A DNA stretch of 53,618 bases from Anaerolineaceae bacterium (GTDB lineage: Bacteria; Chloroflexota; Anaerolineae; Anaerolineales; Anaerolineaceae), in contig JAQTMA010000008.1 of NCBI GenBank assembly GCA_028714615.1, positions 1-53,618 of the forward strand. Reading direction: 5' to 3'. How positions within the stretch are numbered: position 1 is the stretch's first letter; each line of letters starts with the position of its first letter. Shown here piece after piece: positions 20,243 to 53,114 of the stretch. The translations under genes and the position numbers were made by a program. The notes beneath the pieces were generated by a model. That model did not search any database, was not told where the DNA came from, and was given only the letters and a program-made list of their open reading frames with translations.

Positions 20243-20251
20243 GCCGGAAAA

Positions 20252-22180: not shown

Positions 22181-22212
22181 GGATACCCCCTCATAAAATG
22201 ATCAGTAGATTA

Positions 22213-24615: not shown

Positions 24616-27600
24616 TCACCCGGTGATCCGTCCTCGCAGCTCTAGCAAATCCTGCTCGAAGTTCTCACCTCGGATGACCACCACCCGATACCCCAACCGC
24701 CTCAACGCGATCCGCTTCCTCTCGTCCGCCACCTGGACGTAATCCCGGTAATGCGGACTTCCATCCACGAACACCACAATACGCGGTTGGTAGAAGAAGT
24801 CGGCAATCGCCAGCGGTGCCTGATCCTGGTCATACAGCGTTTTCTGGCCTTCATCCGGCAGCCGGACGTTCTGCTCGACCAACCAATCCAGAGTTTGTCG
24901 TTCCAAGTCGGATTGGCAACCCGCATGCAAAATGCTCAGGCGGTCTCCTTCGGTTACATCGTCCGCTTGGATGGTGACATCCCCTATCCCGTTCAGCCAA
25001 TCTAAAACCACCGTCCGGTCCATCACCGCGTGGTCGCGCTGGTTGTAGAAGGACAGCAAGCATTCGTAGCAAGCTTTCTCGCAGCCCTGTTCAGAATCAT
25101 TCCCGTGCAATAGTTCCCGCATGCGCAACAGGAGGGAAGTCATCCGGTCCGGCTCGTTGAGCGCTGATAGGATCCCACTCCCACCGGTGGAGGTTTCGTA
25201 TAAAATCACCCGGGAGCATAGAGGTTTCGCGGGGTCTGGGAGCAGAAAACCTCCAATCTCACTTTCATCCACCTGGAACGCCACGAGCACTGCTCGGATT
25301 AAGGCGTTCTTCAAGGTGGTGTAGAACACCTCCCGGCGGTAATTCCCGGGTAGTGGGACATCGAAAATCGCCAGATCGCTTTGCTGCAAATCGGTCAGCC
25401 ACAGACCCTGAAGCAAATCTTCTTCATGGGCGCCTTGCGAGCAGTCCCCATGCTGAGTCACATTGCGGATATGTTTTCGCACGGCCTCTTCAGATAACAA
25501 CCAGGCATTACATTTCCGGCACAGGGTAAAACCGGTGGCCTGCCCTTCCGCATTGCGCGGGCCATGATTGACCAGTAAGATCTGACCTTCATTTTCCAAC
25601 GCTATCGAGAATTGGGCACTGCCCCCCGAATTGACCGAGTAGCGGCGGGAATATCCAGACCGGCGGTAATGCGGGGTGATCTCGTACCCCAGCCTCAACC
25701 GTTCTTCCTCGTCAGCGGTAATGCGAGCCCGGCGCATGGCGAACATGTCGCATAACGCCATGCCGAGACGCGGATGCATCGCCCCCAGGTCCTGCCCACA
25801 ATCGCAAGCAGCCCGGCTGGTCTCTTGCTCGCCAATATAACTGCGCCCACAGGCTGGGCAGATCAATACCCGCTCCGTAGATGGCTCGAGCTGGCGGGTC
25901 TTAGGCCGGCCATGGGTGACTTCATAACGTTCGCCCCGGTAGTACACAAAGTTGCCAGGAGCATATTCGACCAGCGCAATCGAGGGGCTGCGGGCAAGCT
26001 CTTCCTCGCGCATATCGAAGGAAAGGTGAGCGGCCTCGGGTGGGAAGGCATATCCAGGCAGAAACCCTTCTCCACCGAGGTAGCGATAAACGTACCAATC
26101 CGCTTCACCGCTGCGCATGTCTTCCAGCTTCTTTTCGATCACCGATCGCCGGCGGTTCAGGCTCATATCGACACCCTCTTGACCGAGGATGCGGTTGAGG
26201 CCCTGCCGTTCTTCATCCAGACGTTTGTACTCGATGCGCCAGCGCTCCATCGCCCGATCCAGATCAGCAATAAATTCGCTGACCGTCCCTTCTACCATGA
26301 CTTTCGTGAACCAGGAGTACTGACCCATCTCTTCCTTGAAGGCTTCAAAGACGGCCTGACAGATGGCAACATGCTGGCGGTCAAGCGCTGTGCGCCAGGC
26401 GGTAAGTAGATCCGGTCGCAGCGGATAGTTCTCGAGCTCCAGATCTAGCAGTTCTTCTGGTTTGGAGGGCAGCTTTTCTCCGCCTGCTCGGCCCATTGTC
26501 TCCAAAACGAGCGCATGGATGTGCGCTTTCAGCAGGTACGGATTGTCCAGGCGAAACCGCGGGGCGGCGATCGCACCAGAGATCATCTTCTCGGGGAAGC
26601 GGTAGAAGTACTGGTCGTGCGGCCCACGCGCCTGACCAACGCCGGCAAATACCGAGATTAGAGACGGCTGTCCACTGCGGCCGGCACGACCAGCGCGTTG
26701 GGCGTAGTTGCTGGGGCTGGGGGGAACATTGCGCAGGGTCACGGCGTTCAGGTGGCCGATGTCAATTCCCAACTCCATAGTCGGGGTACAGATCAGGACA
26801 TTCAGTGGATTGGCTGGATTCTTGAAATTAATTTCGATTTTGCGGCGATCTTCTCCCGCAACCTGGCCGGAATGTTCCTCGGCCTTGATGCGGCCGGCCT
26901 CCCGCAGCGACATGGCGTACATCTGCCGGAAATAATTCGCAGACAGGTCTCGCTCGGTGAGCTGCGTCCGGCAGGTGGAGCTGGTACAAACACGCAGCTG
27001 CTGGAAACGGTGCACCGTCAGGCATTTCGGGCAGATGAGTTGCCTTTCCGTCGGGTCTGCTTGAAGGGTGATGATATCCGCGGGGATCATGTAGAGACTG
27101 TAGGGCGTTTTATGGTCATACACCGTGTGCCGGTACAGGAACCCAATTTTTGGCCGGGAAAGGTTCTCCACCAGGCGGGCAATTAGCTCGTTGGCCTCCG
27201 CTGCTGGTAAATCTACCACCCGGCGCACCCAGGCAGTCAGCTGCGTATTTGTCCCGGTGAACCGGTAAGCCGTGTATTTATTCCAATTCGTGCTCGGGGC
27301 TTCATCGCTGTAGCCGATCGGCCCGCGGAACTCTTCATCATGGAATTGGACATCCTCGTTCATCCGGTTGAGCACCGTCGTCCGGAAATTGACTGGAGAC
27401 AGAATCGTGTCGTGGCGAATTGCCTGGCGTTTGCGGATCAAGTCCAACATGCCGAGCAGCAGATCGTAGCGCACTTCCGGGGTGAGCCCAGCCATTTCGG
27501 GGATATCGTACCAGGCAGCAGAGTCGGCAGCGAACTGTTCAAGGCCTGAATACCCCACTCGGAGAAGTCCCACATCTTCCAAGTTTTGGTGGGTGCGCCG

Positions 27601-29922: not shown

Positions 29923-29956
29923 TATCGATCCCTTCTCGATCAAGCGTTATGCAGTT

Positions 29957-32092
29957 CTAGTTGATATCCAAGCAATCCCACAAATCGGGAGAAGCGGTGG
30001 TCATGAATGGGGAAATCAGCCTATTCCGGTATGCCACAATCAAACGGCGCATGGCGCGGGTCATGCCAACAAACAATATCCGTCGCTCTTGGGCCAGGTG
30101 CTTTTCCAAGTCATCGGCTCGTTCGTCGGGAAGGTCACGGGGTAGCTGTCCTTTTTCGGTGTACGGCAAAACAACGATAGGAAACTCCAGTCCCTTCCCG
30201 GAATGGATGGTCAGTGCTTTTGCTCCAGGAGCGTAAAGGTTAATACTTTTCCCAGTAACATAGGTAGTAGGTAACCCAAAGTTAGTTAAATATGCAGCAG
30301 CTTGCTGGGCCAGCTGGTTATTGGGCGCCAGGATGGCGATCGCGCTGTTGGGCATGTGCAGTTCTCGGGCAACAACAGCCAGGCGGTCAGCCAGAGCTAA
30401 AAATAGCATCTCTTCATTTACCGCTGATAAAATAACCGGCCGAGGCCCCGAATGTACGAACACCTGGTCGAGCGCTTCTTCATCACCGGCCCCAGTATTG
30501 TTCAACATTGCCGCGGCAGCTGTAGCGATCTGGCGGGTCGTCCGATAGTTCCGTTTGAGAATGCGGGTGCGCCCGGTAACGCGCAGGGAATCGTGTACAT
30601 TTTTCCAGGCAAACCCTTTGTTATACAGCGATTGGCTTGCGTCTGCGGTTAGGAAAATGCCCTCGGGGGATTGGCATAAATCGATGCAAAATGCCAGCGC
30701 GGCGGGCGTTAGATCTTGCGCTTCATCTACCAACACGTAATCAAATTTCTGGCTCTGCCATTGGCCACTCATGACTAATTCTAAAGCTCGCCGGCGCAGG
30801 GTACCCCAGGTGGTTTTACGCGGTGAGCTGTATTGCAAGAACCGGTCTGCGTGCTCGTAGATCATCCAGACGGCTTCACGCATGCGCGCATCGAAAGCAT
30901 ACCCGCGTCCCGAACGGTCCACCTTCAAGTACTCTTCCAAGGTCTGGATCCCCTGCCCCTCGATGACCCATTCGAATTCCTCGATCAGGTAATCGTCACG
31001 TAAGGCTTTCAAAGCATTCCCGATCAACATGCTTTCAAGCAGAGTTTTGCCATGGGGGTTATAAGCAGCTCTCGCGCTGGTAAGTGCATTGAGCAGATCC
31101 ATATGGGACGCCATGGTTGGCTTCCCATCCTTCGACTCAACGATCTGACGGGCAATCCGGTCAACCGTTGATACCTCAAGTTCGATTGGAGAGTCTTGGA
31201 CTCCTTCTAGCAGGTGAGAAATTAGCTGCCGCGATACTTCCACCAGTGTATTGGTATAGGTAGTAAATAGAACGCGGACGGATCTTGAATGATTCCTTGG
31301 GTTCCTTACTGCTCGCTCCACCAGTGCCCGCACCCGATACATGGCCACTGTCGATTTTCCTGAGCCCGGCCCTCCTTTGACCAGCGTCGGCCCTTTCAAA
31401 CCCCAATCGACGTAGCGTTCTTGGTCCTTATCAAGGAGCAGCAAAAAGTCGATGAGATTACCCTCAGCGTAGCGGGTCAGATCACCCGGCTGCTGCACGA
31501 CCAGATTGGGCTGGTCGACCAATTCTTCCGCAGTCGCCGGCCACAAGCAATCGACGACATGCAGGATATAAGTATCGGGAGCACCGCAGTTCTGCAGCTG
31601 GTCCTCAGTCTCGCAGCCCAGGAAACAATGATGGCATTCCAACGGGATTAACCACCGGGTGAGCAGATCTGAGGTCAACTGGTACGGGAGCGTACGAGAT
31701 TGATCAGTTGCCCTCTGGCGGGTGTGATTCTGCCATTCCACTGGCGTTTCTTGATCCGGATCGAGCGCCTTTTCCAAGGCACTTGAATAATCCGCGTAGG
31801 CAGGCTCGTCAGGTTGGTAACGCATACGCTCGTAGACTTCGCCCCGAGGACCGATACCCAGAATCTGGACTAAATCCCGCCCTGGGAAAACTGCGTAGAC
31901 CATGCGATATTCACCAATGCGATAACGCCACAGATGTTCATGGTGTTTGAGCCGCTTGATGGTATCGCCCCGGGGAGTAATTGGGTCAAGCTCCAATTCT
32001 TCCTGGGCGGCATCCACGCGCCTCTGCATGTCCTTGTTCAGGTTGAGGAAATCCGCTCGGAAAGCGGGTTTCACTGTGATGATATAAGGCAT
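29957..32092 (-). CDS. RelE-like domain fused to UvrD-family helicase
   Basis: About 711 residues. Residues 1-90 resemble a RelE/ParE-type toxin fold ('WRYRIGEYRMVYAVF', 'VQILGIGPRGEVYERM'). The rest is a superfamily 1 helicase: Walker A KGGPGSGKST near 236, VLVDEAQDLTP near 452, 'LKRNYRTTRQIATAA', IHSGKGLEF near 628 and VGMTRAMRRL near 670. All helicase motifs look intact. A toxin-like domain fused to a helicase suggests either RNA or DNA cleavage coupled to translocation, or use of the fold only for binding. The start at MPYIITVKPAF follows the winged-helix gene stop by 7 bases, and the large helicase starts 34 bases downstream. Confidence 0.88.
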   Translation of the reverse strand: MPYIITVKPAFRADFLNLNKDMQRRVDAAQEELELDPITPRGDTIKRLKHHEHLWRYRIGEYRMVYAVFPGRDLVQILGIGPRGEVYERMRYQPDEPAYADYSSALEKALDPDQETPVEWQNHTRQRATDQSRTLPYQLTSDLLTRWLIPLECHHCFLGCETEDQLQNCGAPDTYILHVVDCLWPATAEELVDQPNLVVQQPGDLTRYAEGNLIDFLLLLDKDQERYVDWGLKGPTLVKGGPGSGKSTVAMYRVRALVERAVRNPRNHSRSVRVLFTTYTNTLVEVSRQLISHLLEGVQDSPIELEVSTVDRIARQIVESKDGKPTMASHMDLLNALTSARAAYNPHGKTLLESMLIGNALKALRDDYLIEEFEWVIEGQGIQTLEEYLKVDRSGRGYAFDARMREAVWMIYEHADRFLQYSSPRKTTWGTLRRRALELVMSGQWQSQKFDYVLVDEAQDLTPAALAFCIDLCQSPEGIFLTADASQSLYNKGFAWKNVHDSLRVTGRTRILKRNYRTTRQIATAAAAMLNNTGAGDEEALDQVFVHSGPRPVILSAVNEEMLFLALADRLAVVARELHMPNSAIAILAPNNQLAQQAAAYLTNFGLPTTYVTGKSINLYAPGAKALTIHSGKGLEFPIVVLPYTEKGQLPRDLPDERADDLEKHLAQERRILFVGMTRAMRRLIVAYRNRLISPFMTTASPDLWDCLDIN

Positions 32093-32099
32093 AATACCT

Positions 32100-32372
32100 C
32101 TATTTCGTTGGAAGGTCACCAGGGTGATTGTCTATGAAGTAAAACACCCATTCCCGTTCTCCGTAGATTCCCTGGACTCCCCGGATTTTTCCCTGATTCA
32201 TCAGCTGGCGTGTGATCATAAACACCTGTTGGTGCGGCGATACCCCTGTCTGACGGGCAATTTCAGAGTTGCTCGCCCCATGGGGAGCGATGGACAACAG
32301 GTAACGTACAATTTTTTGGGTATTGGTTGGTAACGCCCTCTCGCCGATTTCCTTGTTACTTTCTTTTGCCAT
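32100..32372 (-). CDS. Small winged-helix protein
   Basis: A 90-residue protein with a winged helix-turn-helix: 'IVRYLLSIAPHGASNSEIAR' followed by 'TGVSPHQQVFMITRQLMNQG' and a wing ending 'EREWVFYF'. It overlaps the end of the RusA-like gene by 17 bases and ends 7 bases before the RelE-UvrD start. It is probably the operon's own DNA-binding regulator or a DNA-binding subunit of the complex. No specific family is recognised. Confidence 0.7.
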   Translation of the reverse strand: MAKESNKEIGERALPTNTQKIVRYLLSIAPHGASNSEIARQTGVSPHQQVFMITRQLMNQGKIRGVQGIYGEREWVFYFIDNHPGDLPTK

Positions 32373-32733
32373 AAATCCACACCTCAGCGCATTCCAGACC
32401 GTCCGGTCCAAATTCGGCTTCGACCTGAACCCCGCGGACATGATGAATGTGGTCATCCGGGTATAGCAACCCAGTAAATGCATCCACAATTAGCTTGGGG
32501 ATATTCTCTACATCAGGAATCTGCCGGACTACCTGCCCTCGAGACTTGTTAACGATGCAGTGGATGGAAAACACGAACCAAGCGTACTGACTAGCCAATT
32601 CGTTGGACAGCCCAGCTCGCTCTCGAACTGTCTGCTGATATTCCTGGTCGTGCGACGACCCCCAGGTCTGGACGCGGGGAATCGAGAAGCGAGCAACCTC
32701 TTCTAGCCCAATTGGCTTATCAAATATCGGCAT
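32356..32733 (-). CDS. RusA-like endonuclease
   Basis: A 125-residue protein. The segment PDVENIPKLIVDAFTGLLYP followed by DD (residues 73-94) matches the RusA Holliday-junction resolvase signature 'PDxDN..K...D.L.g....DD'. Putative catalytic residues are D74, E76 (Asp in RusA), K80 and D93/D94. The C-terminal 'GVQVEAEFGPDGLECAEVWI' fits the final strand. RusA proteins cut branched DNA and are usual in phages and mobile elements; one inside a restriction-like operon is unusual. It overlaps the upstream gene by 14 bases and the downstream gene by 17. One acidic substitution leaves catalytic activity uncertain. Confidence 0.7.
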   Translation of the reverse strand: MPIFDKPIGLEEVARFSIPRVQTWGSSHDQEYQQTVRERAGLSNELASQYAWFVFSIHCIVNKSRGQVVRQIPDVENIPKLIVDAFTGLLYPDDHIHHVRGVQVEAEFGPDGLECAEVWIYGKRK

Positions 32734-33448
32734 GATGCGCTAACCTTCGTCCGATCTCTCCGAAATACGAATCACTAACCCCTCGCGCTGTCGGGTGCTT
32801 GACTAACGCAAAGAAAATACCCTGATTTTCGGCCAGTCCCCACTCCCCAGAATCCTGAAGATGAAACGGTTTCCCCGCAATGATTTCATACCATTTTTGA
32901 TAAACCAACCCATAGCAAACCACATACTCAGGCTGACAGCGTTCAACCATTCCACGAATTGCTTCGGCTCTACTGTAGCGCTTCGTTTTGCGATATGCCT
33001 CCCGGCTGCTGAGCTCGGGTATGCTAAACCAAGTCGGATAGTTCCATATATTAGCATTGGGAGATGGTAGAGGCAGCAGTTCTAAAGAGCAGGTCTCCCC
33101 ATCCTGGCGACCAAAACAGGCCTTCTGGTAGGCTTGGACTGATGTTCTATCATACGGCTCCCCTTTTAGCGACTGTAATAGGCATATGAGCCGTTTCCAC
33201 GTAGGTTGCATCCTGACCGGATCCCTGAAAAACCGATCCATCCCCAGCCGGTGATGAAACTCGGACACGTCGGCTGTAGCCGGTCGGCCAAGTTCGTCCC
33301 AAATCTCCAGACGCCGGCAGATCTCCTCCCGGGTATCTCCGCCGCCTTCCTCCATGCCCACGAACCAGAAAGGACCGGCTGGGTTGCCATAGCCGTAAAA
33401 CCCTTTCATGAAATCAATGAGCAGTTTGTCAGATGGTGTCTCAGGCAT
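32720..33448 (-). CDS. Uncharacterised protein, possibly uracil-DNA-glycosylase-like fold
   Basis: A 242-residue protein. The stretch GPFWFVGMEEGGG (about 25-37), with later 'EYVVCYGLVYQKWYE' and 'FFALVKHPTARGVSDSYF', is the order of elements in the UDG superfamily: a first glycine-rich catalytic loop, a central strand and a final loop containing His. The classic GQDP and HPS motifs are not exact, so activity on uracil is doubtful. It may instead recognise modified bases or act as a DNA-binding accessory. It starts 40 bases after the NucS-like gene stop. Function unknown. Confidence 0.5.
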   Translation of the reverse strand: MPETPSDKLLIDFMKGFYGYGNPAGPFWFVGMEEGGGDTREEICRRLEIWDELGRPATADVSEFHHRLGMDRFFRDPVRMQPTWKRLICLLQSLKGEPYDRTSVQAYQKACFGRQDGETCSLELLPLPSPNANIWNYPTWFSIPELSSREAYRKTKRYSRAEAIRGMVERCQPEYVVCYGLVYQKWYEIIAGKPFHLQDSGEWGLAENQGIFFALVKHPTARGVSDSYFGEIGRRLAHHADI

Positions 33449-33488
33449 AACCGACCCATAATCGATCGAATGACATCCCTATTAACCT

Positions 33489-34472
33489 CTAAGTCGTTCC
33501 TACCTTTGTTTGCTTTACCACTCCTTCGAACAAGCCATCTAACCCGTTCACGAAGGCTTCTACCTGATTCGCCGTCATCTCACGCCAGCCAGATACACCT
33601 AAAGCACCAAGGGCCGCTTCTTCGGATACGGGGAAAAACTCCGTAAAGACCTCAGGCTCAATATACATCCATAAGGGCTTGCCAGGTTTCGGATCAGCTC
33701 GTACGGTAAACAGCATGCGGGTGTGGTTGTTGGGAGGCGTAAACATGATACTCCGCGCATATGGACGCGGGTATAGGCCATGCTTCAGCGCTCCTTCGAC
33801 CAACGCATGTACCTCCGCCCCGACCCCATGTTGATCAGCCATATGGCATATCGCATCTATGGTCTGGTATTTCACTGGTTCCGAGAACGCATTTCCATGA
33901 TCTGTATCCAACTCGGTCAGTTCCCGGGTAAGGATCCGCTCACCAGTCTCGAGCTCAAACATATCAAAAGAAATGACCGAAATAGGCATCTCGTAGCGTT
34001 GTGTCAGGAACTGGACAGTACGGTCTAGCCCCGGTGTTCGTCCGGCACCTACTAAGAAGATCACCGTCTCCCGTTGGGTTGAATTATTATCTTCTTCTAC
34101 ACCCCGTTGGCGCAGGAGTTCATGCAGGGATTTCCCTTTCGGTTTCAGGTAACCATCTACTTGCCGCTGCAAATCCCCATGGCGAGATGTGCCAATGTAG
34201 GCAGCGTAGTAAATCGCCTGGCTTATCGCATCCGCAGTAATCGCTCCGGCTTTGATCTCAATAATTGCCCAGCGTCCTTGCGGATCCAGCGCCAGGAGAT
34301 CAAGGCGTCCACCTTCCATGGAAAGCTGTCGCCCAATAATCTCTAGGCCGCCTTGAACCAGGCGAGGGTCTGCTTCGATCCAAGATTCCAGGTTCTTTTC
34401 AATGTCGATATTGCATTCGGGGAGCTTCTTAGGACCCTGTCCAACAATTTGCCATAACCCGAACCTCGACAT
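33489..34472 (-). CDS. NucS/DUF91-like endonuclease
   Basis: A 327-residue protein. Residues 20-100 contain 'LESWIEADPRLVQGGLEII' and 'GGRLDLLALDPQGRWAIIEI' ending in KAG, a PD-(D/E)xK core with D58, E72 and K74 as catalytic candidates. This is the DUF91/NucS family, whose members include mismatch-specific and branched-DNA nucleases. The C-terminal 200 residues ('HTRMLFTVRADPKPGKPLWM', 'SGWREMTANQVEAFVNGLDG') are unlike mycobacterial NucS and may bind the partner complex. AGGAGG precedes the ATG. It lies 23 bases after the Mrr-like gene. Confidence 0.78.
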   Translation of the reverse strand: MSRFGLWQIVGQGPKKLPECNIDIEKNLESWIEADPRLVQGGLEIIGRQLSMEGGRLDLLALDPQGRWAIIEIKAGAITADAISQAIYYAAYIGTSRHGDLQRQVDGYLKPKGKSLHELLRQRGVEEDNNSTQRETVIFLVGAGRTPGLDRTVQFLTQRYEMPISVISFDMFELETGERILTRELTELDTDHGNAFSEPVKYQTIDAICHMADQHGVGAEVHALVEGALKHGLYPRPYARSIMFTPPNNHTRMLFTVRADPKPGKPLWMYIEPEVFTEFFPVSEEAALGALGVSGWREMTANQVEAFVNGLDGLFEGVVKQTKVGTT

Positions 34473-34495
34473 AACGACCTCCTGGCGAAAATATT

Positions 34496-35704
34496 TTATT
34501 CTGAGGATTCCGTTGATTCTGGTTGTTCTTCTCCGATGGAGAGCAACTTCTTCTCATCGAATTCATAAAAGTCAACACTCTTCTTAGAGATACCGATCTC
34601 GTAATCCATCAATAGGTCCAACAGCTTTTCCCCATCAATAAGTGTGATCGGTGCAGTCCCCTGCTCCAGCGATCCATTCTTTGCACCCGAAGAGAACGTG
34701 CCAGTTGTGATAATCGTCCCCCGCATAGCTTTGAACCGATGCAGTGAACCACGTAGCTGGTCTAACACCGTACGATTAATGGATCCGCTGTGACGCTTCA
34801 CCTGGACGACCTCCCTGACAGAACTAATACCTAGCTCGATATCGGCTACCACGTCGACGCCTTTGTCGTTGCTGGGAGAGGTCACACTCACATTGATATA
34901 CCCCATCTCTTGGAGTAGCAGGCAAACCAGATGCTCAAATTTGTAGGGATTCATCGTAGAAAGGTAATTTGCAAACTTTTCCCGGGCTTCTTGAGAGATT
35001 TGGTGGGCCAACTGTTGTAGCTCCGTTTGCTTGGATGTCACGGCTCGGCCGGGAATATGTGATGCCCCTTGCTGCAACTTAGCCAGTCCTTTGTCCGTGA
35101 TGCTATAGCGATTAGCATTCCGCTCGATCAACCCCCTGTCGATCAGATTTACCAGGCGATTATATAGCGAGCTCTTGTGTACCGATTCGCTGCGGTAGTT
35201 GGTGTAGGTATCACAGAATTCAACATACCCAGGAAGGATTTCCGACCGCTGACAGGGGCTATGTTCGCTGACAAGCTGCAACACTGAAAGCAAGCCTTCC
35301 TGCCGATCCAACTCCATCACCAAGCCGCCATCCGGTTGGGTAATGAATTCTTCCCCTCTTGCGGTGTTCTTCAGGCAATCCTGGTTATCCTTCTCCATCA
35401 TCTTGTAATGGTCGGATAGCATCCAACACCAATAGGAGTGGCGGGGATTAACGTGCTCGTCTGTTTTTTTCCAAAGCCGTTTGGCCAGCTCACGTTCGGT
35501 ACCCTGCAGCCGGATAGGGATCCATTCTAATGGGTCCCTCCAGTCTACATTCGCCTGAGGATTGCCTATCTGATCCCAGATCTGCTTCATCATCGCCATG
35601 TAGATTGGAAAGGCTTCTCCGTCCATGGCTTGGATGAACGCCCTCACCTGAGTATAGGTCGGGAGGTGCGGGGTGAGTGAGTGGCGAACATCAGCAGTAT
35701 CCAT
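34496..35704 (-). CDS. Mrr-like restriction endonuclease
   Basis: About 402 residues. A central winged-helix region (about 150-230, 'LYNRLVNLIDRGLIERNANR') is followed by an Mrr_cat PD-(D/E)xK domain (about 250-370): 'YKFEHLVCLLLQEMGY', 'DKGVDVVADIEL' and 'REVVQVKRH', giving the E...D...Q-x-K catalytic set. Mrr-type enzymes cleave DNA, often modified DNA. The N-terminal 140 residues ('QLGTERELAKRLWKKTDEH'-like region) are unassigned. AAAGGAG precedes the ATG at 35704; a start 11 codons earlier lacks a good ribosome site. It follows the 252-residue unknown by about 36 bases. Confidence 0.82.
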   Translation of the reverse strand: MDTADVRHSLTPHLPTYTQVRAFIQAMDGEAFPIYMAMMKQIWDQIGNPQANVDWRDPLEWIPIRLQGTERELAKRLWKKTDEHVNPRHSYWCWMLSDHYKMMEKDNQDCLKNTARGEEFITQPDGGLVMELDRQEGLLSVLQLVSEHSPCQRSEILPGYVEFCDTYTNYRSESVHKSSLYNRLVNLIDRGLIERNANRYSITDKGLAKLQQGASHIPGRAVTSKQTELQQLAHQISQEAREKFANYLSTMNPYKFEHLVCLLLQEMGYINVSVTSPSNDKGVDVVADIELGISSVREVVQVKRHSGSINRTVLDQLRGSLHRFKAMRGTIITTGTFSSGAKNGSLEQGTAPITLIDGEKLLDLLMDYEIGISKKSVDFYEFDEKKLLSIGEEQPESTESSE

Positions 35705-35740
35705 TGGCACTCCTTTTTTTCGAATCATCCATATCAACAG

Positions 35741-36499
35741 TTACTTAACCCACGGCAGCCAGGGAGATAGCAGCCTCTGCCAGACCTCCGCAGCAGACCA
35801 ATCACCTTCCGGTTCTGGATCAAATAGCACACCAATCTCCAGGTCGATCCAAACCCAGTCGAGCCTGCCTTTTTGGTTCGCTGCGGCTGCCAATCCAACC
35901 AGGTTTTGGCTGGAATACAAAGGTTCCATTTCGTCGCGTAAATTGCGGACTTCGCGGCAGGTTAGTTCTCCCTTTTCGTTCATATCGAACCATAATCTTC
36001 CTGCGGAATGGTCTGCACAGTAGGATTCTATGTTTTCATACGGCCACTCATCCCCGTCTTCCAGGATTTCCATACCGGTTGTGTAAGTTCCGCCAACTTT
36101 AACCATTAATGGATATCCATTCGCTTGGAGTACCTCCCGGGCAGCACTTAAAAAGCTTACTGTACTGATCTGCTGAACGATAGTATGCCAGGACCAGGTA
36201 GAATCCATGATCCAGCCGCGGTCCCTGAGATGTGGATTTGCCAGGGCAGCTACCACACCAAAGCCCTTCTCAACATAAAACGAAGTGAATAATTTGCCTT
36301 CCAGTTCTTCAAAGCGCAGGCATAACTTGGGGAAAGGATAGGCAGGCCATTGGGTGGTACGCAAAAGGTACCAGGGATTTCTTTCTGGGTTATAGAAATT
36401 CCAGGGTCGAGCGGTCAACCCCCGGTGTGAGATACCCAAGCTCTCCTGCCGCAGTGCATGAGCGAGGTCTGGCAAACTTCGGAACGCGATCGTGTTCAT
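35741..36499 (-). CDS. Uncharacterised 252-residue protein
   Basis: Soluble, acidic, with no signal peptide and no catalytic motif that I recognise. It is rich in Trp and Tyr ('WPYENIES', 'WAWHTIVQ'-like stretch, 'LDWVWIDLEIGVLFDPEPEG'), suggesting a compact mixed alpha/beta fold that may bind DNA or a partner. It lies between the methyltransferase (29 bases upstream) and the Mrr-like nuclease, all on one strand with close spacing, so it is probably a subunit or specificity factor of the same system. No function is proposed. Confidence 0.65.
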   Translation of the reverse strand: MNTIAFRSLPDLAHALRQESLGISHRGLTARPWNFYNPERNPWYLLRTTQWPAYPFPKLCLRFEELEGKLFTSFYVEKGFGVVAALANPHLRDRGWIMDSTWSWHTIVQQISTVSFLSAAREVLQANGYPLMVKVGGTYTTGMEILEDGDEWPYENIESYCADHSAGRLWFDMNEKGELTCREVRNLRDEMEPLYSSQNLVGLAAAANQKGRLDWVWIDLEIGVLFDPEPEGDWSAAEVWQRLLSPWLPWVK

Positions 36500-36528
36500 A
36501 GGATTCTTAGAACCGCCATTTCCGACTT

Positions 36529-39500
36529 CTACTTTCCAAACTTCTTATATCCCGGATCTTTCCCGCCGTGGACCAAGCGGGTGTGCCTCTCCTGGTCCAT
36601 GCCCACGATCATCTTCCCGCACGCCTGGCACTTGGATAGCGAGAAATCCATCAGGGCGAGCTGGGCTGGGGAGACCTCGCGCGGTTCTGGCAAGGGTGGT
36701 GGCTCGACTTTCGCTGCTGGTCGAGAGGTGATTACTCTATTAGTGGCTATCCCAGGAGGAAATTTCCCTGGGTCCGGAGCGAGCGGGGACTCTGGCGTGG
36801 GGGTAGATGGTGGCCGAGAAGGTTGATTTATCTCAGATTTTTGTGCGTTGGATATTTGTGAGGAAACCTGGACAGATTTTATAAATAACCCCAACTCACC
36901 CAATATACCAATTGCACGATAAATATTCTCATCTGTAAACCAGGAGTTATCAATTTTTTCGGGCCAATCCGATTGAAAGTATGCCCGAATATTCTCAGGT
37001 GTGATGACTCTATCATTGGCAAATATCTCTCGGCCAGCAAAATCTACGGTCGCAATACCGCCAAGATCATCCTTCGTCAATTCAGACAACCGTTTGATTA
37101 TTTGGCTTGCCCGGTTTGTATCTGTTATTACTATATCTGTGGCATCAAGGGCTTTATTTATATTTCGACCCCTCACAACATTGGTTTTCCCCTTCACAGC
37201 CCAATAATTTCGTTTTTTGGCTAGTCCACCTGCCTTATAGGTCAAACCCGGAGAATAGGGTCCGGCGGCAAACTCGCGGTATGAGATGTCCAAGTCCACT
37301 AGGTTGGACCTTTGCAAAAAGTAGCTATATTTTTGAATTTCGAACAAAGGTATTGAGAAATTGTTTCCAAAATTCTCTAAAAGCCATGCGACGGTAATCG
37401 TTTGACGGAAATTTGGGGATCCTTGTTTATTAATATTTTTGACTGGATCTGGGATTGATGGTATCCAGTGAATAGCAGGTACTGGTTGCCTGAGTTCGGT
37501 TACTGGTGTCTTTGCGGCAAGAGGCAGAGGTGGCTCAGTCCGTTTTGGCGCGAGGACCAGAGAAGGGTTGGCCACAGGGACAAACGTCCGCTCGCCGATG
37601 ACTGACTCCTGCTGCACGGCGCGCACTTCAGGCGGGATCAGATCACTGCCAGCGAGGCGGTCGTAGGCTTCCAAGGAGAGGCGTTTGGTTCGGTATTCAC
37701 CAAACTTGGCTTCATCTTTTCGGCAGACAATGGGAAATGTGCCAAGGATATATTCAAATTCAAGTCTGGACAAACCAAATAGATTTGCATAAAGACCATC
37801 GAGTTCAGCTCGAATATTTGCTCTTCTATCCTCATCCCATCTGAAAGGACTGTATGAGAATCCGTCTGCTCGTCTCGTAGCTACCCAATTAGGACGAATT
37901 TCGGTCGTCATGGATTGATCAGTTTGGTTTTTCTTCCATTGCTCAATAATTTTCATTCGTAGGGTATCGTTCGATTCGAGCCAAATATCATCTGCGAGAC
38001 CTATCATATCCCACGAACAACAAGAAAGCTCTAAAACTCTAGGAATGATGAATTGTTCTAGCTCGGGACAACTTAACAAATCGGGATTTGGGGCAACCAA
38101 TTCATATAAAACCCCCTTGAGTAACATGCCTGGTGTTCGAAGCCTCGCGAGAAAATCAAAGGGAATTGAGTTCAGCACAGAGAGGAAGGTTGCTTGTTGC
38201 TTCCTTGGGAACTTTAAAGGATCCACTCGTAACGCTACCAAGGCATCGTTTGCAGGATACCCAGGAACGAATGCAGCTATTACGGTTCTGGCATTTGAAA
38301 TGACATTGGTTATTCTTCGGAACGCGATATATATTTTGGGTAAGCCAAGATAAGCAAATCTCTCTTTGGCTAAGCTAGATGGTATCCAGTACCTAGGTTC
38401 TATTATGTAATTTGGGTCGATTTTTTGTTCTAGGTCAGGATGATGAGTTTCTGGTTTTTTCCCGAATCTAATTGCTATGTTAATTCCTTCAAAGGAACTA
38501 AATCTATGATCATAAATTTGGATGTATTTCCCTTCATAAAAGGGAACGTACTCGAGGTCACCTGATTTATATTTATTATCATCATCAGCAACAAAACCCA
38601 ATGCCTCCAATTCTTCTTTGGATTTAAATATTCCGCTGTCCCCTGATGCATGAAATAATGTGCTGTATGAAATCGACCAAGGATTGGAGCCTCGAGTCTC
38701 GTCTACTAACACCTTTAACAGACTATAGGTCTTCTTCAATATATGGTAATCTGTCTTTGAGGAAATTAGAGGAACTTTCCCTGAATTTGGGCTTAATATT
38801 TGGATATCTGATTTCTCGAAATTAAATATTCTATCGGAATCTGAAAGATCATCTACTGTGGCACAGTAAAAGGCAAATTGCTGAGTTTTTGTCGTATCAA
38901 TTGTTCTGGACGCTATTGTCAGTAAGGAATATCTTTCATGATAGCCAACTGAGGGAAATAATCCTTTCCAATTTTTAAAATCGTACAGAGAAGTAATTTG
39001 CGTATTGTCAAATAGGTAATTGAACAGACACAATGCATTATCTGCAGAAAAAAAACTGGATTTTACCACTATTCCAGCTCGGCCCTGGAAATTTATTAAT
39101 TGACTAGCTAATTCCGTGAAAGGAAGGTAGGTGTTAATCTCTCCATCAGATGAATGAACAAATCTTGCAGAATTTTTTACAAATTTGGTAAGAAATTCTG
39201 CCTGAGTGTAGTCATGTAGCCATTGATTGTATAACGAGGGATTCCGCGTTTTCAGTTTTTGTATTTCGTTGTCTCTTGTAAATTTTTTCTTATTGTTCGC
39301 TATTAGCTCATCTTTCCCCGAAAAATATTCTATTTCTAATATTGAATATTTTTCCCACGGGGGATTTCCAAGCACTACATCAAAACCACCTGACCCTTCA
39401 TTGTCAAATAGTTCGGGGAACTCTAGTTCCCAGTGCAGGAAGCGGTGTTCGTCGCGCAAACTCCTGGCCAGCGACTTTTTCTTCTCGTTTACCAGGCGAG

Positions 39501-41895: not shown

Positions 41896-41943
41896 AGAAG
41901 GTCCAGGAGTTAGTGGTTAGTGATTAGGAGCTGGTCAAACTCT

Positions 41944-42837
41944 TTATTGCATCTGTTCATTCAAGATTGGCAGTAGAGTGCCGTTGCGCAGATAAGTTGC
42001 ATACCTATACCACTGCCTAAGCATGTCAGTTTTAACTGATAACCGACTTGCCCAATGTTGGGTATCAGAGTAAAGGGCTTCGTTATTTGAGATCTGGATT
42101 AAAGTTGGCACATCGTTTTCTAGGATACACGACAATTCCTGCAGAATAAATGCCTGCGAATTGGGCAGTTGCCGCATAATAATTTCCGGGTGGAAATTAA
42201 CACCAGCTGAATATGTTTTTACAATCTCAACCAAGCTTTTCCTTGCAATGAAATGCGGATCAACAACAATTCTGTGAAGGCAATCGAAAGGTAATAATTC
42301 GCCCTTCATCGTTAGGCTAATTTCTGGATTTACGGCATAATCTATCCCAAAACGTTTTCTGAGTTCAGATTTGGTTCTAAGTTCCCTTCTCTTCTTGGGG
42401 TATGCATTCGCGGGGTATTTAAACGTCTCATTCAAATCATTGATCAATTGCAGGGAATCGTGTTCGCGGTTGAAATTAAATCCCCCACCAGATTGTATGC
42501 TAATCGCAACATCATCAGCAAGCAATAATGCTTCCGGAAAGAACTCAAAAGCTATGGGTCCATAAATGGTTGGTATAGCATCTTTTCCGTCTTCGAAAGA
42601 TGCACCATAGTCCAACGGATTGGCAAACACTTTATCCCAGACCGAGTTCTCTCGGTCATGTTCATCGGTATCAAAAGCTGTAAAAGGAAGCCTATGTTCT
42701 TCGAGTAACCTGCGCGAGGGTATACCTCCTAAGGGAATATATGATTGATAGTCGATAAATTGGCAGGAATGGAAAATCTTAACCTGTCGTTGGTTGAATA
42801 ACTCGACGACCTCTTCAATTTGTTTGCCGTAAAACAT
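41944..42837 (-). CDS. Uncharacterised protein with weak DarT-like resemblance
   Basis: 297 residues. The N-terminal part 'QVKIFHSCQFIDYQSYIP' with 'GGIPSRRLLEE' and 'DYGASFEDG' followed by 'IPTIYGPIAFEFF' recalls the layout of DUF4433/DarT-type DNA ADP-ribosyltransferases (an F/YH pair, a Gly-Ile-x-Ser/R loop and later motifs). The similarity is faint and I cannot place the catalytic glutamate. The C-terminal half is helical. GAGG precedes the ATG. It lies between the UDG-like gene and the methyltransferase on the same strand. DNA modification is one possibility; the function is not established. Confidence 0.45.
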   Translation of the reverse strand: MFYGKQIEEVVELFNQRQVKIFHSCQFIDYQSYIPLGGIPSRRLLEEHRLPFTAFDTDEHDRENSVWDKVFANPLDYGASFEDGKDAIPTIYGPIAFEFFPEALLLADDVAISIQSGGGFNFNREHDSLQLINDLNETFKYPANAYPKKRRELRTKSELRKRFGIDYAVNPEISLTMKGELLPFDCLHRIVVDPHFIARKSLVEIVKTYSAGVNFHPEIIMRQLPNSQAFILQELSCILENDVPTLIQISNNEALYSDTQHWASRLSVKTDMLRQWYRYATYLRNGTLLPILNEQMQ

Positions 42838-42896
42838 GATGTGGCCTCAATGTGATGTGGTTGGGTAGCGGGTTCATTCCTGTTGCTAAAATAGAA

Positions 42897-43589
42897 TTAA
42901 GGAATGGTCAGATGATGTAACACCATCAAGGTCTGTTTCATAAATCCGATATACCTTTCCAGGTTGTCCTTATAATACTGTTTCCGCAAGCTGGGTTGAT
43001 GTGGGAACGGGAAGATGACGTGGTTCAGGACATTTTCCTCAGGATAGAGATAACGGTAGCCTCGATGTTCTCCGGGTTTCCAGCCTAAGACGTATCCCCA
43101 ATAATCCCGTACTTTAACATTTCTGAGATCTGTTACGAGTACAGACAAAAGAGGTTCACCCAAGGTAATAACGGGAACACCGGAAAACTCAGCTAATTCT
43201 TCCTTCAAAAGAGGTAACCAATATCTTAAAGCCGGCCTAAAGACATCCAGGGATCGAATCTGGGTGGGTGGTTCTATGAAGAAATTCTTATACAGGTTGG
43301 TGGCATATACGTTTTCTTCCAGGGATATCCCTAACCCTGCACAGATTCTTGCCAGGTACGTTCGCAGGTTGCCCGACCGATCCAGATTCAATACGCAATG
43401 GATTTTCTTTCTGGAAATTGAGTTTTTTATCGTTGGATCCTGGCCAAGTACAACCAATCGGATTTCCCCATTTCCACGATACACCTCAGGGATCGGTAGA
43501 TCAGCATCGACATAGGAACCCAAGGATGAGTCCCCTCTTAATCGGTCATTTATTGCCCAAGCTTTTCTGGTTAGCGATTCGTTTTGCAT
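42897..43589 (-). CDS. Uracil-DNA glycosylase superfamily protein
   Basis: About 230 residues from the ATG at 43589. 'RLVVLGQDPTIKNS' (near 44-57) corresponds to the catalytic water-activating loop GQDPY of UDG, and 'FPFPHQPSLRKQYY' near 190 corresponds to the HPS leucine-loop region. A central 'VPVITLGEPLLSVL' fits the core strand. The usual Tyr after GQDP is Thr, so its base preference may differ from uracil. No FeS-cluster cysteine set is visible. It starts about 30 bases after the SNF2 gene. In this operon it could remove modified or deaminated phage bases so that the nucleases can act; that role is inferred. Confidence 0.75.
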   Translation of the reverse strand: MQNESLTRKAWAINDRLRGDSSLGSYVDADLPIPEVYRGNGEIRLVVLGQDPTIKNSISRKKIHCVLNLDRSGNLRTYLARICAGLGISLEENVYATNLYKNFFIEPPTQIRSLDVFRPALRYWLPLLKEELAEFSGVPVITLGEPLLSVLVTDLRNVKVRDYWGYVLGWKPGEHRGYRYLYPEENVLNHVIFPFPHQPSLRKQYYKDNLERYIGFMKQTLMVLHHLTIP

Positions 43590-43618
43590 TACTACATTCC
43601 CCTTTGATGTTAGCGAGC

Positions 43619-46474
43619 TTAATCCGGCCAGAGTACTTTTACTGATAGCAAGTCCCATGAGCTAATCGCTAACTGGTCGGCTCCTTCCAGCCAACTCGCC
43701 TCGCGGTGAAGTGCTTCACGAAGTGCTATCCGATTGAAAACAATCGCCTGGCGCCGGAGTTCAACCTGCTGATCGCACAGCACACTCAACTTCGCATGAG
43801 ATAGTGCGTCATGAAGGATCTCTTCAGCTTCCTGGTGTGTCAGGGTGACCGGTGATGGTTTTGCATTGATTAACCGCCGAGTAGCCTCGGAGTTCAACGT
43901 TTCGTCTCCATATACTGGGAGGGCAAACGTTAGTAAATCCTCAAGGATTTGCGGTGGCGTCGTACTGGTTGTATAGCGAACCACGAGTGTAAACAATGCG
44001 GTTACCTCTGAAACATCCGGGGTGACAAGGACAGCAGTCCGGCCATATCGGATTTGAGCTCCTGGCTGGCCGCAGTCCGGCTCGAATGTCTGGCGTTTGA
44101 GCACGTCCATCAGCCGCCTGACTAGCGGGTGCCCCAGATCCAATACTTCTACCTCAGGATGGTCCAAACCGACTTGCGGATCGAAGGTGGCGCGCGCAAT
44201 TCCATCGGCTACACCCGGCAGCCTGAGATCTGGATTACTGATCGCGATCCGCAGGGTCCGGTCCGTGTTTTCGGAAACTACACAGCCCATGCTGTTCAAT
44301 CCGCTCATCACAAACTTGCGGATTTCCTCGGTAGTACCGATCGTTTCATTCACCTGCTGCATCTGGGTTTCGACCACACCCAGGCTGATATCGCTCTGTC
44401 CATAGAAGGATTCGCCTTTGATCCGTTCCAACAGCTCTTCGCTGAATGGATCTTCGGGCGCTGCCTCATTCTGAGCGACAGTTTCAAACAAGCTTAGCTG
44501 GACCGGGCCGAGATGCACCCCCCGGCCGTGCTCGCTGATGAAATCCAGGATGTTGTTCTCATCCCCAAAAAAGGGCGGGGAAAAGCCGTAGGCATCGCGG
44601 ATGCTGCGGGCTTTCTTGACCAGGTGCTCGAGGATGACCGCGTCCAGGGTATCGTTCATTACCATGGTACGGATGACCACCTGCCCTTCGGGCTGCCCGA
44701 AGCGGTCGATGCGGCCGTTGCGTTGTTCCAGGCGATTGGGATTCCAGGGCAGCTCATAATGGATCAGCTGGCTGGCCAGATACTGCAGGTTGACCCCTTC
44801 ACTAATCGCATCCGTAGCGACCATGACGGCCTTGGGGGCTTGATCAAATTTATCGAATGCTTCCTTGCGCTGGACCTCATTCATCCCACCGTGCAAGGTA
44901 ATCACCTTGACCTGGCTAAACTGCGGAAACTTTTGGATTTGCTCCGCCAGGTACTCCATCGTGTCGCGGTAACGGGTGAAGATGATGGCTTTATGCTTGT
45001 TCAGAACCATAGTGCGCAGCGTATTGCGCAGCAAATCCTGCAACTTATTATCAGCAGAGGGGGTGACGCGTTCAGCCAGGCGCTGAAGATCGTCCATGGT
45101 TTTCAGTTCCGCCCGGATAGCTTCTGGACTGCCGGTGGCGACCCGTTCAGAGCGGTCGACGATTTCAGCTTCGTCGTATTGCTCGCCTGGATCCTCATCG
45201 AGGACATTCGCCCTGGCCACCTCGAAGGGGATCAGCAGGTCCTGATCGGTTAAGCCGTCCAGGCGCTGCTCCAGGGCCAGCCGGCGATTGCGCAGTGAAC
45301 GACGCAGCGCTTCGGGAGATGACAGTGCCCGTTTGTGCAGGTGAAGAACTGCCCACCCTGCCAGGGTTTGGATGTTGGTTCGGGCGCCGCGCACATTCTC
45401 CAGGATCAACTCGCCATATTGATTAACCGCCTCGATTACAACGCGCTCCTGGGCGGAGGGCTGTATGGTGACTTCGTTTTGGTCGCGTTCTGGAAAGTGC
45501 TGCTGCGAGCCGGAACTTTGGCGCAGCCACTGCTCCACATCTGACCGGCGGCGCTGGATGATATGCTGGCTGGCTGCTGCCCGGTTAATGCGCGGATCAT
45601 GCACCGGACCCTCCACCATGTCGGGATCCAACATCCGCAGCAGGCTGGCGAAGGAATCCGTATAACCGTTATGCGGGGTGGCGGTGAGCATCAGCATATG
45701 CTTGACATTCGGTGAGGATGCAAGCGCCTTCCCTAGCTCCCAGCGGTCCATGCTGACGTGCTGGTCAGGTCCGCTTTGATGGGGTTTGGCCATCTGGTGG
45801 GCCTCATCAACCAGGACGATATCCCAGGGAACTTCCAAGATTTGGTTTTTGATATCCGGGCTTTTGGCGTAGTCAATTGAAACGATGAAGCAGTTGTGGA
45901 ACTCCCAAGGGTTTGAGCCGGCTGGCAGGTCGCGTTCTAAGGCGCGCCGGTGCGTGCGTGAGAAGATGACTGCATCCAGGTGGAAGAAGTAATCCAGCGC
46001 CTGCCGCCACTGCTCGCGCAGACCGGCCGGGCAAACAATCAGCACACGCCGCGCCAGGCCGCGCGCCAGAAGTTCGCTAACGACAAGTCCAGCTTCGATG
46101 GTCTTGCCCAAGCCGACATCATCAGCGATCAGCAGGCGGACGCGCGGTTGCTCCAGGGCCATCACCAATGGAGCGAGTTGATAAGCCACCGGGATGGCCC
46201 GTGACCGCTGCAAAGCCAGCAGCGGCGCGGTGGAATGGACCATTGACAGCCGAAAGGCGCGCAGCATCAGGTCATGGGCTTGGGGCGTGCCAACCGTGGC
46301 CGGGTCGGGTGCAGGCAGGTTGCCAGGGGAGACCTTCTCAACGGGGAGGTAGAGGCGCACCTGCCGGGTAGCTTCATCGACCGCAGTCAGGTAGAGAACG
46401 TCGCCGTCTTGGGCATCCACGCGCCATAAGCGTTGCCGAGCTTGCACCAACGTACCGGGAGAGTACAGGGGCAT
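43619..46474 (-). CDS. SNF2-family helicase (DrmD/HepA-like)
   Basis: 951 residues. The superfamily 2 SNF2 motor has motif I ADDVGLGKTIEAG near 116, motif II VDEAHQMA near 220, LTATPHNG near 265, motif V 'VATDAISEGVNLQYL' and motif VI 'EQRNGRIDRFGQ' near 585. The N-terminal 'TLVQARQRLWRVD' segment and long C-terminal region match the HepA/RapA-like architecture of DrmD in class 1 DISARM. It is the first gene of the operon, behind a promoter at 46507-46537 and an AAAGGA ribosome site. It probably translocates on duplex DNA and helps distinguish unmodified incoming DNA. Confidence 0.9.
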   Translation of the reverse strand: MPLYSPGTLVQARQRLWRVDAQDGDVLYLTAVDEATRQVRLYLPVEKVSPGNLPAPDPATVGTPQAHDLMLRAFRLSMVHSTAPLLALQRSRAIPVAYQLAPLVMALEQPRVRLLIADDVGLGKTIEAGLVVSELLARGLARRVLIVCPAGLREQWRQALDYFFHLDAVIFSRTHRRALERDLPAGSNPWEFHNCFIVSIDYAKSPDIKNQILEVPWDIVLVDEAHQMAKPHQSGPDQHVSMDRWELGKALASSPNVKHMLMLTATPHNGYTDSFASLLRMLDPDMVEGPVHDPRINRAAASQHIIQRRRSDVEQWLRQSSGSQQHFPERDQNEVTIQPSAQERVVIEAVNQYGELILENVRGARTNIQTLAGWAVLHLHKRALSSPEALRRSLRNRRLALEQRLDGLTDQDLLIPFEVARANVLDEDPGEQYDEAEIVDRSERVATGSPEAIRAELKTMDDLQRLAERVTPSADNKLQDLLRNTLRTMVLNKHKAIIFTRYRDTMEYLAEQIQKFPQFSQVKVITLHGGMNEVQRKEAFDKFDQAPKAVMVATDAISEGVNLQYLASQLIHYELPWNPNRLEQRNGRIDRFGQPEGQVVIRTMVMNDTLDAVILEHLVKKARSIRDAYGFSPPFFGDENNILDFISEHGRGVHLGPVQLSLFETVAQNEAAPEDPFSEELLERIKGESFYGQSDISLGVVETQMQQVNETIGTTEEIRKFVMSGLNSMGCVVSENTDRTLRIAISNPDLRLPGVADGIARATFDPQVGLDHPEVEVLDLGHPLVRRLMDVLKRQTFEPDCGQPGAQIRYGRTAVLVTPDVSEVTALFTLVVRYTTSTTPPQILEDLLTFALPVYGDETLNSEATRRLINAKPSPVTLTHQEAEEILHDALSHAKLSVLCDQQVELRRQAIVFNRIALREALHREASWLEGADQLAISSWDLLSVKVLWPD

Positions 46475-51994: not shown

Positions 51995-51998
51995 TGGT

Positions 51999-53098: not shown

Positions 53099-53114
53099 CT
53101 GCGATTGTGGCTAG

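What the first reader, a model, noticed from the sequence alone, without database searches (positions are those of the whole stretch)
24616..46474. Twelve-gene composite defence operon, DISARM-like core with added nucleases
Twelve minus-strand genes, with gaps mostly under 60 bases and several overlaps, start at one promoter-like site. The order is SNF2 helicase, UDG-family protein, unknown, PglX-like methyltransferase, unknown, Mrr-like nuclease, NucS-like nuclease, possible UDG-like protein, RusA-like nuclease, winged helix, RelE-UvrD, DUF1998 helicase with nuclease-like tail. The SNF2, adenine methylase and DUF1998 helicase match the core of class 1 DISARM. The drmC phospholipase-D gene is absent, DrmA- and DrmB-type domains are joined, and four nuclease-type proteins plus a UDG are added. 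This combination does not match any defence system I know by name. It suggests a pathway that opens, surveys, de-bases and cuts unmodified DNA.
Basis: partly seen in the sequence, partly recalled or inferred. Interest (0 to 1): 0.93.

Follow-up and report, generated by a model that had tools for sequence, protein, structure and literature searches.

The report
ARMADA phage-defence operon with nested toxin
A twelve-gene bacterial operon is a recently named phage-defence system (ARMADA) carrying eight extra genes, and its DNA-marking enzyme has a tail that resembles an antitoxin for the toxin-like gene next door, which would wire a defence system and a suicide switch together.

Summary
The twelve genes are real, at the stated coordinates, and packed like one operon (gaps -17 to +59 bp). 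The order A-B-D-C also occurs in cyanobacteria. The other eight genes are nested cargo in the armA/armB and armB/armD gaps. In 46 neighbourhoods of ArmC relatives, none of the eight recurs except gene 3, once, so the "open, survey, de-base, cut" pathway is unsupported. Nested defence or toxin genes at the same gaps are common in ARMADA. New finding: "unknown" gene 3 has a DarT-type ADP-ribosyltransferase fold, and ArmB of this window, unlike 23 others, carries a C-terminal domain homologous to the DarT-binding half of antitoxin DarG (hhalign E 5e-11). The two resemble the two chains of one solved complex (7yk3). Most likely ArmB restrains the nested toxin, so attack on ArmB would release it; that step is inferred. 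Gene 2 is a UDG-superfamily glycosylase; gene 8 as a UDG is unconfirmed.

The parts
43619..46474 (-). armA: BrxHII/RapA/DrmD-like SNF2 helicase, 951 aa
   Evidence: PADLOC DrmD E 4e-123; NCBIfam DrmD 457.6 bits, under its cut-off of 610; 50.6% identity to G222 ArmA
42897..43589 (-). nested gene 2: UDG-superfamily DNA glycosylase, 230 aa (start chosen by me)
   Evidence: 527 homologues at E<=1e-3, 3 of the 120 listed carry Pfam PF03167; D51 of GQDP and H197 of PHQPS invariant in 22 of 22 aligned rows
41944..42837 (-). nested gene 3: DarT-fold ADP-ribosyltransferase, 297 aa
36529..41895 (-). armB: PglX-like adenine methylase, 1788 aa, with an extra C-terminal tail
   Evidence: PADLOC DrmMI E 2e-79; Pfam Eco57I; DPAAGSG 568, NPPW 844; in 17 of 21 other ArmBs the best alignment ends at window residue 1412-1420
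36871..37452 (-). DarG C-terminal-domain-like (DarT-neutralising type) domain at the end of ArmB, about residues 1482-1675
35741..36499 (-). nested gene 5: unknown, 252 aa
   Evidence: one close homologue, 50% identity; weak relatives in at least two of 400 Chloroflexota genomes
34496..35728 (-). nested gene 6: Mrr-type restriction endonuclease
   Evidence: Pfam Mrr_cat E 3e-28; PADLOC PDC-S02 E 2e-135
33489..34472 (-). nested gene 7: NucS_C-type nuclease
   Evidence: Pfam NucS_C E 2e-6; PADLOC PDC-S11 E 4e-28
32720..33448 (-). nested gene 8: unknown; UDG-like not confirmed
   Evidence: no family hit; profile comparison with the gene 2 family not significant
32356..32733 (-). nested gene 9: RusA-like
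   Evidence: Pfam RusA 25.1 bits, cut-off 22.8
32100..32372 (-). nested gene 10: small HTH-like protein, 90 aa
   Evidence: weak HTH-type matches, E 0.02-0.1, under cut-off
29957..32092 (-). armD: RelE/ParE domain fused to a GajB-like UvrD helicase, 711 aa
   Evidence: Pfam ParE_toxin residues 8-87 and UvrD; PADLOC GajB; 34-37% identity to cyanobacterial ArmD
24616..29922 (-). armC: YprA/DruE-type helicase with DUF1998 and Vsr/DUF559-like nuclease tail, 1768 aa
   Evidence: PADLOC DruE E 1e-118; Pfam DEAD, Helicase_C, MZB; tail DUF559 E 5e-4; eight CxxC

Best explanation
It is an ARMADA anti-phage operon (armA-armB-armD-armC) used as a platform for nested defence cargo. The core most likely acts as in E. 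coli: a methylase (ArmB) and helicases (ArmA, ArmC, ArmD), with the nuclease tail of ArmC as the likely cutter, block phage DNA directly. Two gaps hold eight extra genes that act as further layers: a UDG-superfamily glycosylase (plausibly removing modified phage bases, as Brig1-3 do), Mrr- and NucS-type nucleases, a RusA-like protein, three small or unknown proteins and a DarT-fold ADP-ribosyltransferase. The transferase is kept in check by the DarG-like tail of ArmB. If a phage inhibits or titrates ArmB, or makes enough ssDNA to compete for the toxin, the transferase is released and modifies DNA, stopping replication: a guard wired into the defence core. Shown here by computation: gene content, ARMADA architecture, DarT fold, DarG-tail homology. 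Inferred: all activities, the ArmB-toxin contact, the release step.
For: ARMADA core: against the definition in PMC12458937; same genes in E. coli ATCC 8739, a locus tested in that paper; order A-B-D-C in two Pseudanabaena plasmids and genome G510. Cargo platform: of 19 non-redundant A-first loci (E. coli included), 16 have at least one same-strand ORF of 80 aa or more between armB and armC/armD and 8 between armA and armB; 9 of 16 nested ORFs that I chose to scan are defence or toxin families. Toxin and antitoxin halves: gene 3 DarT fold; ArmB tail to DarG C-terminal domain; 30 shuffled tails reach Prob 2.5 at most, 200 shuffles 3.6 bits against 28.7. A classical DarT is nested in another ARMADA, G259, followed by an ADP-ribosylglycohydrolase. 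RefSeq names a DarT-family gene in a Deinococcus BREX operon that also has a RelE-UvrD. DarG's C-terminal domain blocks DarT by ssDNA mimicry (PMC11481870, passages).
Against: Gene 3 is not significantly similar to DarT in sequence (hhalign Prob 0.9, E 0.061). In 11 of 18 other loci (8 of the 11 Poribacteria) its family follows a conserved ~315-aa partner that the window lacks, so its usual control may differ. The tail model used DarG rows as its alignment and is partly circular. The closest relative of the tail found in whole genomes sits on an HsdS subunit, with no toxin seen on its 4-kb contig, so the domain could serve other binding. No ADP-ribose hydrolase was recognised in the operon. 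None of 23 other ArmBs has the tail, so the case is single. The Deinococcus gene called DarT by RefSeq is not hit by PADLOC or by my DarT profile. Co-transcription was not tested and no promoter was found.
Confidence: 0.6

Rival explanations
1. Plain defence-island stacking: ARMADA core with unrelated hitch-hiking defence genes; gene 3 works alone or with an unseen partner, and the ArmB tail is a DNA- or protein-binding module without antitoxin role.
For: GC content is mosaic: armA and armC 57-58%, first half of armB about 60%, its middle 34-45%, gene 2 44.6%, gene 3 41.4%, genes 5-10 49.5-52%. Seven of the eight cargo genes never recur and gene 3 recurs once in 46 neighbourhoods. The tail domain also sits on an HsdS.
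Against: The only gene-3-type frame and the best DarG-CTD frame of the window are adjacent genes; a toxin without restraint is unlikely to persist; DarT also recurs inside ARMADA G259.
Confidence: 0.3
2. One reading: a single twelve-gene pathway that opens, surveys, de-bases and cuts unmodified DNA.
For: Tight operon; glycosylase, nuclease and helicase genes side by side.
Against: The set does not recur. Four core genes suffice for defence in E. coli (PMC12458937). Gene 8 as UDG is unconfirmed.
Confidence: 0.05
3. A variant class 1 DISARM with drmA-drmB fusion and lost drmC.
For: ArmA scores as DrmD and ArmB as DrmMI.
Against: ArmC is DruE-like, not DrmA; it has a nuclease-like tail; RelE-UvrD is an ARMADA gene; no Pfam PLD domain in the 12 proteins.
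Confidence: 0.03

Closest known systems
ARMADA (Bell et al. 2025, PMC12458937; E. coli ATCC 8739 and NCTC 12900)
   Same: All four core proteins with motifs; operon; ArmC with DUF1998 and a C-terminal PD-(D/E)xK-like tail; ArmD with RelE domain.
   Different: armD before armC; eight nested genes (none in the ATCC 8739 core); ArmB with DarG-like tail; ArmC in a deep clade with one Chloroflexota locus, apart from E. coli type II.
DarTG toxin-antitoxin (DarT1/DarT2, DarG)
   Same: Gene 3 has the DarT fold; the ArmB tail is homologous to the DarG C-terminal domain.
   Different: No macrodomain or NADAR hit; the antitoxin-like domain is fused to a methylase; gene 3 is a divergent family.
Brig1/Brig2/Brig3 defence glycosylases (PMC11078745, PMC13160076, passages seen)
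   Same: UDG-superfamily protein in a defence locus; Brig1 homologues occur near Pgl/BREX genes (figure legend).
   Different: Similarity of gene 2 to Brig proteins was not tested; substrate unknown.
DISARM class 1
   Same: SNF2 helicase and PglX-like methylase.
   Different: One-piece DruE-type helicase, no drmC, RelE-UvrD present.
BREX locus of Deinococcus sp. NW-56 plasmid (NZ_CP026518)
   Same: RelE-UvrD (33% identity) and a gene annotated as DarT-family beside a PglX-type methylase.
   Different: BREX core; its 'DarT' is not of the gene 3 family and is a RefSeq label that my DarT profile does not confirm.

Membership tests
ARMADA | YprA helicase of the ARMADA/Druantia side with DUF1998 | tested here: met
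   PADLOC DruE E 1e-118, MZB, eight CxxC
ARMADA | BrxHII/RapA-like SNF2 helicase (ArmA) | tested here: met
   DrmD, HmaA, BrxHI/II and RapA models
ARMADA | PglX-like methylase (ArmB) with GxG and NPPW | tested here: met
ARMADA | Vsr-type nuclease at the ArmC C-terminus | tested here: inconclusive
   DUF559 E 5e-4, 20.3 bits against cut-off 20.6; D...VDG motif; that DUF559 is Vsr-like is recalled
ARMADA type II | RelE-GajB helicase (ArmD) | tested here: met
ARMADA type II | Strict order A-B-C-D | tested here: not met
   Order here A-B-D-C with cargo; E. coli is A-B-C-D
ARMADA type II | ArmC in the type II clade | tested here: inconclusive
   Window+G222 100/100, grouped with cyanobacterial and Chloroflexota ArmC apart from E. 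coli; long branches, no certain type I anchor
DISARM class 1 | Separate DrmA and DrmB genes and PLD-type DrmC | tested here: not met
   One 1768-aa helicase scoring as DruE; no Pfam PLD domain in the 12 proteins
DarT | DarT fold | tested here: met
DarT | DarT sequence family | tested here: not met
   No Pfam or NCBIfam hit; hhalign E 0.061
DarT | DNA ADP-ribosylation | not testable with these tools
   needs an assay
DarG (ArmB tail) | C-terminal DarT-binding domain | tested here: met
   hhalign E 5.2e-11; the NCBIfam DarG model gives only 15.1 bits, cut-off 250
DarG (ArmB tail) | ADP-ribosyl hydrolase (macrodomain or NADAR) | tested here: inconclusive
   No such Pfam hit in the 12 proteins; folds of genes 5 and 8 not tested
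UDG superfamily (gene 2) | Catalytic motifs | tested here: met
   GQDP and PHQPS invariant in 22 of 22; PF03167 on 3 of 120 listed relatives; Pfam itself does not hit gene 2; motif roles recalled
UDG superfamily (gene 8) | Profile similarity to a UDG family | tested here: inconclusive
   hhalign with the gene 2 family E 0.57 on 4 shallow rows

The most novel reading that the evidence does not exclude
A phage-defence methylase doubles as an antitoxin: the DarG-like tail of ArmB holds a nested DarT-like DNA ADP-ribosyltransferase inactive, so that anti-ARMADA phage factors trigger suicide. More widely, DNA-recognition subunits (ArmB, HsdS) have captured DarG-type domains to guard their systems, and ARMADA operons carry interchangeable nested defences at two fixed gaps.
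Probability: 0.45. Interest if true: 0.82.

Novelty: new variant of a known kind. Interest (0 to 1): 0.62.

Why it matters
ARMADA was named only in 2025 and its mechanism is open. This operon shows that it accepts nested defence genes at set places, and suggests a physical link between a defence methylase and an abortive toxin. If true, inhibiting the methylase would be lethal to the infected cell, a built-in answer to anti-restriction proteins, testable in a laboratory E. coli strain with two genes.

Tried and rejected
DISARM and Druantia as the home of the core: rejected. The twelve genes as one conserved system: all twelve proteins were compared (blastp on ORFs and tblastn, E<=1e-3) with 46 neighbourhoods of ArmC relatives: 42 genomes (22 fetched, the latter upstream side only), G007, two Pseudanabaena plasmids and E. 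coli ATCC 8739. 27 of the 46 show A, B and C in the stretch held; the rest show fewer core genes there, so some may not be ARMADA. The only cargo hit is gene 3 in G007, outside its core. An earlier count had missed G192, whose genes lie across two fetched stretches; one search replaces it. A concatenated query of the eight cargo proteins (400 Chloroflexota genomes) hit 138 of 400, the listed rows being scattered and mostly Mrr and NucS; only two candidates per genome were scored, so linked sets could be missed. Six gene 7 neighbourhoods (L165-L170) resemble each other in gene lengths and look chromosomal rather than defensive (by eye).

Relatives in IMG/VR by pattern scan: none for genes 2, 3, 8 or the ArmB tail. 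Gene 8 against gene 2 family and gene 5 against gene 3 family: not significant. Partner of gene 3's family in the window: none. ArmB tail by Pfam and by sequence against the PDB: nothing; gene 3 profile and gene 2 by sequence against the PDB: nothing of use. Second cyanobacterial tail hit, G537 (E 6e-6), is a TPR protein and was dropped as chance; it shows that E near 1e-5 in that search is not safe, so the single Chloroflexota hit (1 of 301, E 8e-5) counts only because it lies inside a DarG gene. Poribacteria: 0 of 84. tRNA att-site repeat: only a 16-base copy at 1200, not pursued. Taxonomy: no genome is held for the window; of the Chloroflexota and cyanobacterial genomes searched the closest ArmC is in a Chloroflexota genome, G222; host not proven. 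Paper searches without a hit on DarG domains fused to specificity subunits or on guard methylases; DarT with nested BREX: one paper, judged beside the point from its listing. The held main text of Bell et al. has no DarT, ADP-ribos-, glycosylase, nested or accessory (supplements not read).

Full report
OBSERVATION. All twelve ORFs are present on the minus strand at the stated coordinates. After choosing likelier ATG starts (my choice, five genes) the gaps run from -17 to +59 bp. Helicase, methylase and nuclease motifs are intact. A sigma-70-type scan found no promoter upstream of gene 1; one terminator-like site lies downstream of gene 12 at 24380-24393 (shuffles give 0.3).

THE CORE IS ARMADA. 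PADLOC scores gene 12 as DruE (E 1e-118), with DrmA at 2e-18; gene 1 as DrmD; gene 4 as DrmMI; gene 11 as GajB. Pfam adds MZB/DUF1998 on gene 12 and a ParE/RelE domain on gene 11. This is the set that Bell et al. (PMC12458937; I saw the abstract, the first three of eight parts of the text, the conclusions and the figure legends) call ArmA, ArmB, ArmC and ArmD. They report that the four genes protect E. coli without abortive infection and that each is needed. The order A-B-C-D of E. coli ATCC 8739 was checked. The window has A-B-D-C, with cargo; D directly before C also occurs in Pseudanabaena galeata and Pseudanabaena sp. ABRG5-3 plasmids and in cyanobacterial genomes G510 and G533. ArmC relatives at E<=1e-60 occur in 64 of 400 Chloroflexota and 19 of 292 cyanobacterial genomes. 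In an ArmC tree of 28 rows the window pairs with Chloroflexota genome G222 (100/100, 46% identity) as sister to 22 cyanobacterial and Chloroflexota ArmCs; E. coli type II ArmC and that of ABRG5-3 lie outside on long branches. So ArmD, described as the mark of type II, is here in a lineage that is not clearly type II; the type remains open.

CARGO SLOTS. Of 46 neighbourhoods (42 genomes, G007, two plasmids, E. coli), 27 show A, B and C; 20 of these have A first, and two of the 20 are 99.9% alike, leaving 19. Between armB and armC/armD, 16 of 19 have at least one same-strand ORF of 80 aa or more; between armA and armB, 8 of 19. The three without a B-to-C insert are G512, ABRG5-3 and E. coli. These are mechanical ORFs, and short ones may be spurious. 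Of 16 nested ORFs that I chose for a Pfam scan, mostly the larger ones, nine are defence or toxin types: NB-ARC/TPR (G222); PIN, PtuA and PtuB, i.e. Septu (G510; PADLOC E 5e-156 and 2e-86); GmrSD (G164); OLD/AriA-like (G323); DarT and ADP-ribosylglycohydrolase (G259); Uma2 (G504). The other seven: a 195-aa ORF with a weak zf-AN1 match and a zinc-ribbon 273-aa ORF (G222), a radical SAM protein and a kinase-like protein (G542), a UvrD-like 1440-aa protein (G106), one without hits (G144), one IS200-type transposase (G504). The two Pseudanabaena plasmids carry PIN/DUF6516 genes and Phd-VapC in the gaps (RefSeq names).

THE WINDOW'S OWN CARGO. Gene 2 is a UDG-superfamily protein. Genes 6 and 7 match PADLOC's candidate families PDC-S02 and PDC-S11. 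Gene 9 is RusA-like. Gene 5 has one close homologue in the protein search. Genes 8 and 10 stay undefined. None of genes 2 and 5-10 recurs in the 46 neighbourhoods; gene 3 recurs once, in G007, some 7 kb past armB. GC content shows a mosaic: armA 57.6%, armC 57.5%, first part of armB near 60%, its middle 34-45%, gene 2 44.6%, gene 3 41.4%, genes 5-10 49.5-52%, armD 53.5%. So cargo and the methylase's specificity region probably came separately.

MECHANISM. DarG's C-terminal domain blocks DarT by mimicking ssDNA (PMC11481870, passages). By analogy ArmB should hold gene 3's product inactive; loss or occupation of ArmB would free it. That DarT recurs inside ARMADA (G259, with a hydrolase) and, by RefSeq's label, with a RelE-UvrD in a Deinococcus BREX operon (label not confirmed) supports a functional link between PglX-type systems and DNA ADP-ribosylation. 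No interaction was tested. Gene 2 may act like Brig1-3, glycosylases that remove modified phage bases (PMC11078745, PMC13160076, passages).

VERDICT. The core is known (2025 preprint); the D-C order and nesting are variants seen elsewhere; the DarT-fold gene with a DarG-tailed methylase was not found described in the searches I made. The ARMADA assignment I hold at about 0.93, the layered-cargo reading at 0.75, the ArmB-as-antitoxin step at 0.45-0.5.

Noticed in passing
window 19301-23975, minus strand: Next operon: protein kinase, AAA_23 ATPase (642 aa), 185-aa protein with a weak ABC-3C MC2 match (E 0.02), Cap4-nuclease-like 402 aa just under cut-off: looks like an ABC three-component-type defence system.
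   Followed up: no
window 50503-53186: HTH protein, two tyrosine recombinase-like genes (50900-51994 +, Pfam phage integrase; 51999-53024 -, by eye) and tRNA-Met: possible integration module of a mobile island; only a 16-base tRNA copy at 1200 found.
   Followed up: partly
L178 (NZ_CP026518.1, Deinococcus sp. NW-56 plasmid): BREX operon with nested RelE-UvrD, HNH, DarT-family (RefSeq label) and HsdR_N-type genes.
   Followed up: partly
L193 (G259:C253), 9649-12043: Classical DarT plus ADP-ribosylglycohydrolase nested after armB of a Chloroflexota ARMADA.
   Followed up: partly
L108 (G510:C71), 10145-12256: A Septu pair (PtuA, PtuB) nested between armB and armD of a cyanobacterial ARMADA.
   Followed up: partly
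L001-L006, L008-L011, L014: A conserved, unnamed ~315-aa gene directly upstream of gene-3-family DarT-fold genes, often overlapping: a likely new toxin-antitoxin pair.
   Followed up: partly
L317:159-1961 (G613): HsdS specificity subunit with a C-terminal DarG-tail-like domain.
   Followed up: partly
L177 (G057:C1), 6462-9703: Mrr-like, UvrD-like and DarT-like (E 6e-5) genes in a row.
   Followed up: no
L003:6454-7035, minus: 193-aa ORF matching the DarG-tail profile (E 2e-4) about 3 kb from a gene-3-family locus; no Pfam hit.
   Followed up: no
window 42897-43589: The protein search lists an identical 208-aa form of gene 2 on a 32,225-base contig, not 53,618 (P0047): a second assembly of the region or a cut contig.
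   Followed up: no
window 36529-41895: Sharp GC drop inside armB from about 60% to 34-45% near residue 800: probably an exchanged specificity region.
   Followed up: no
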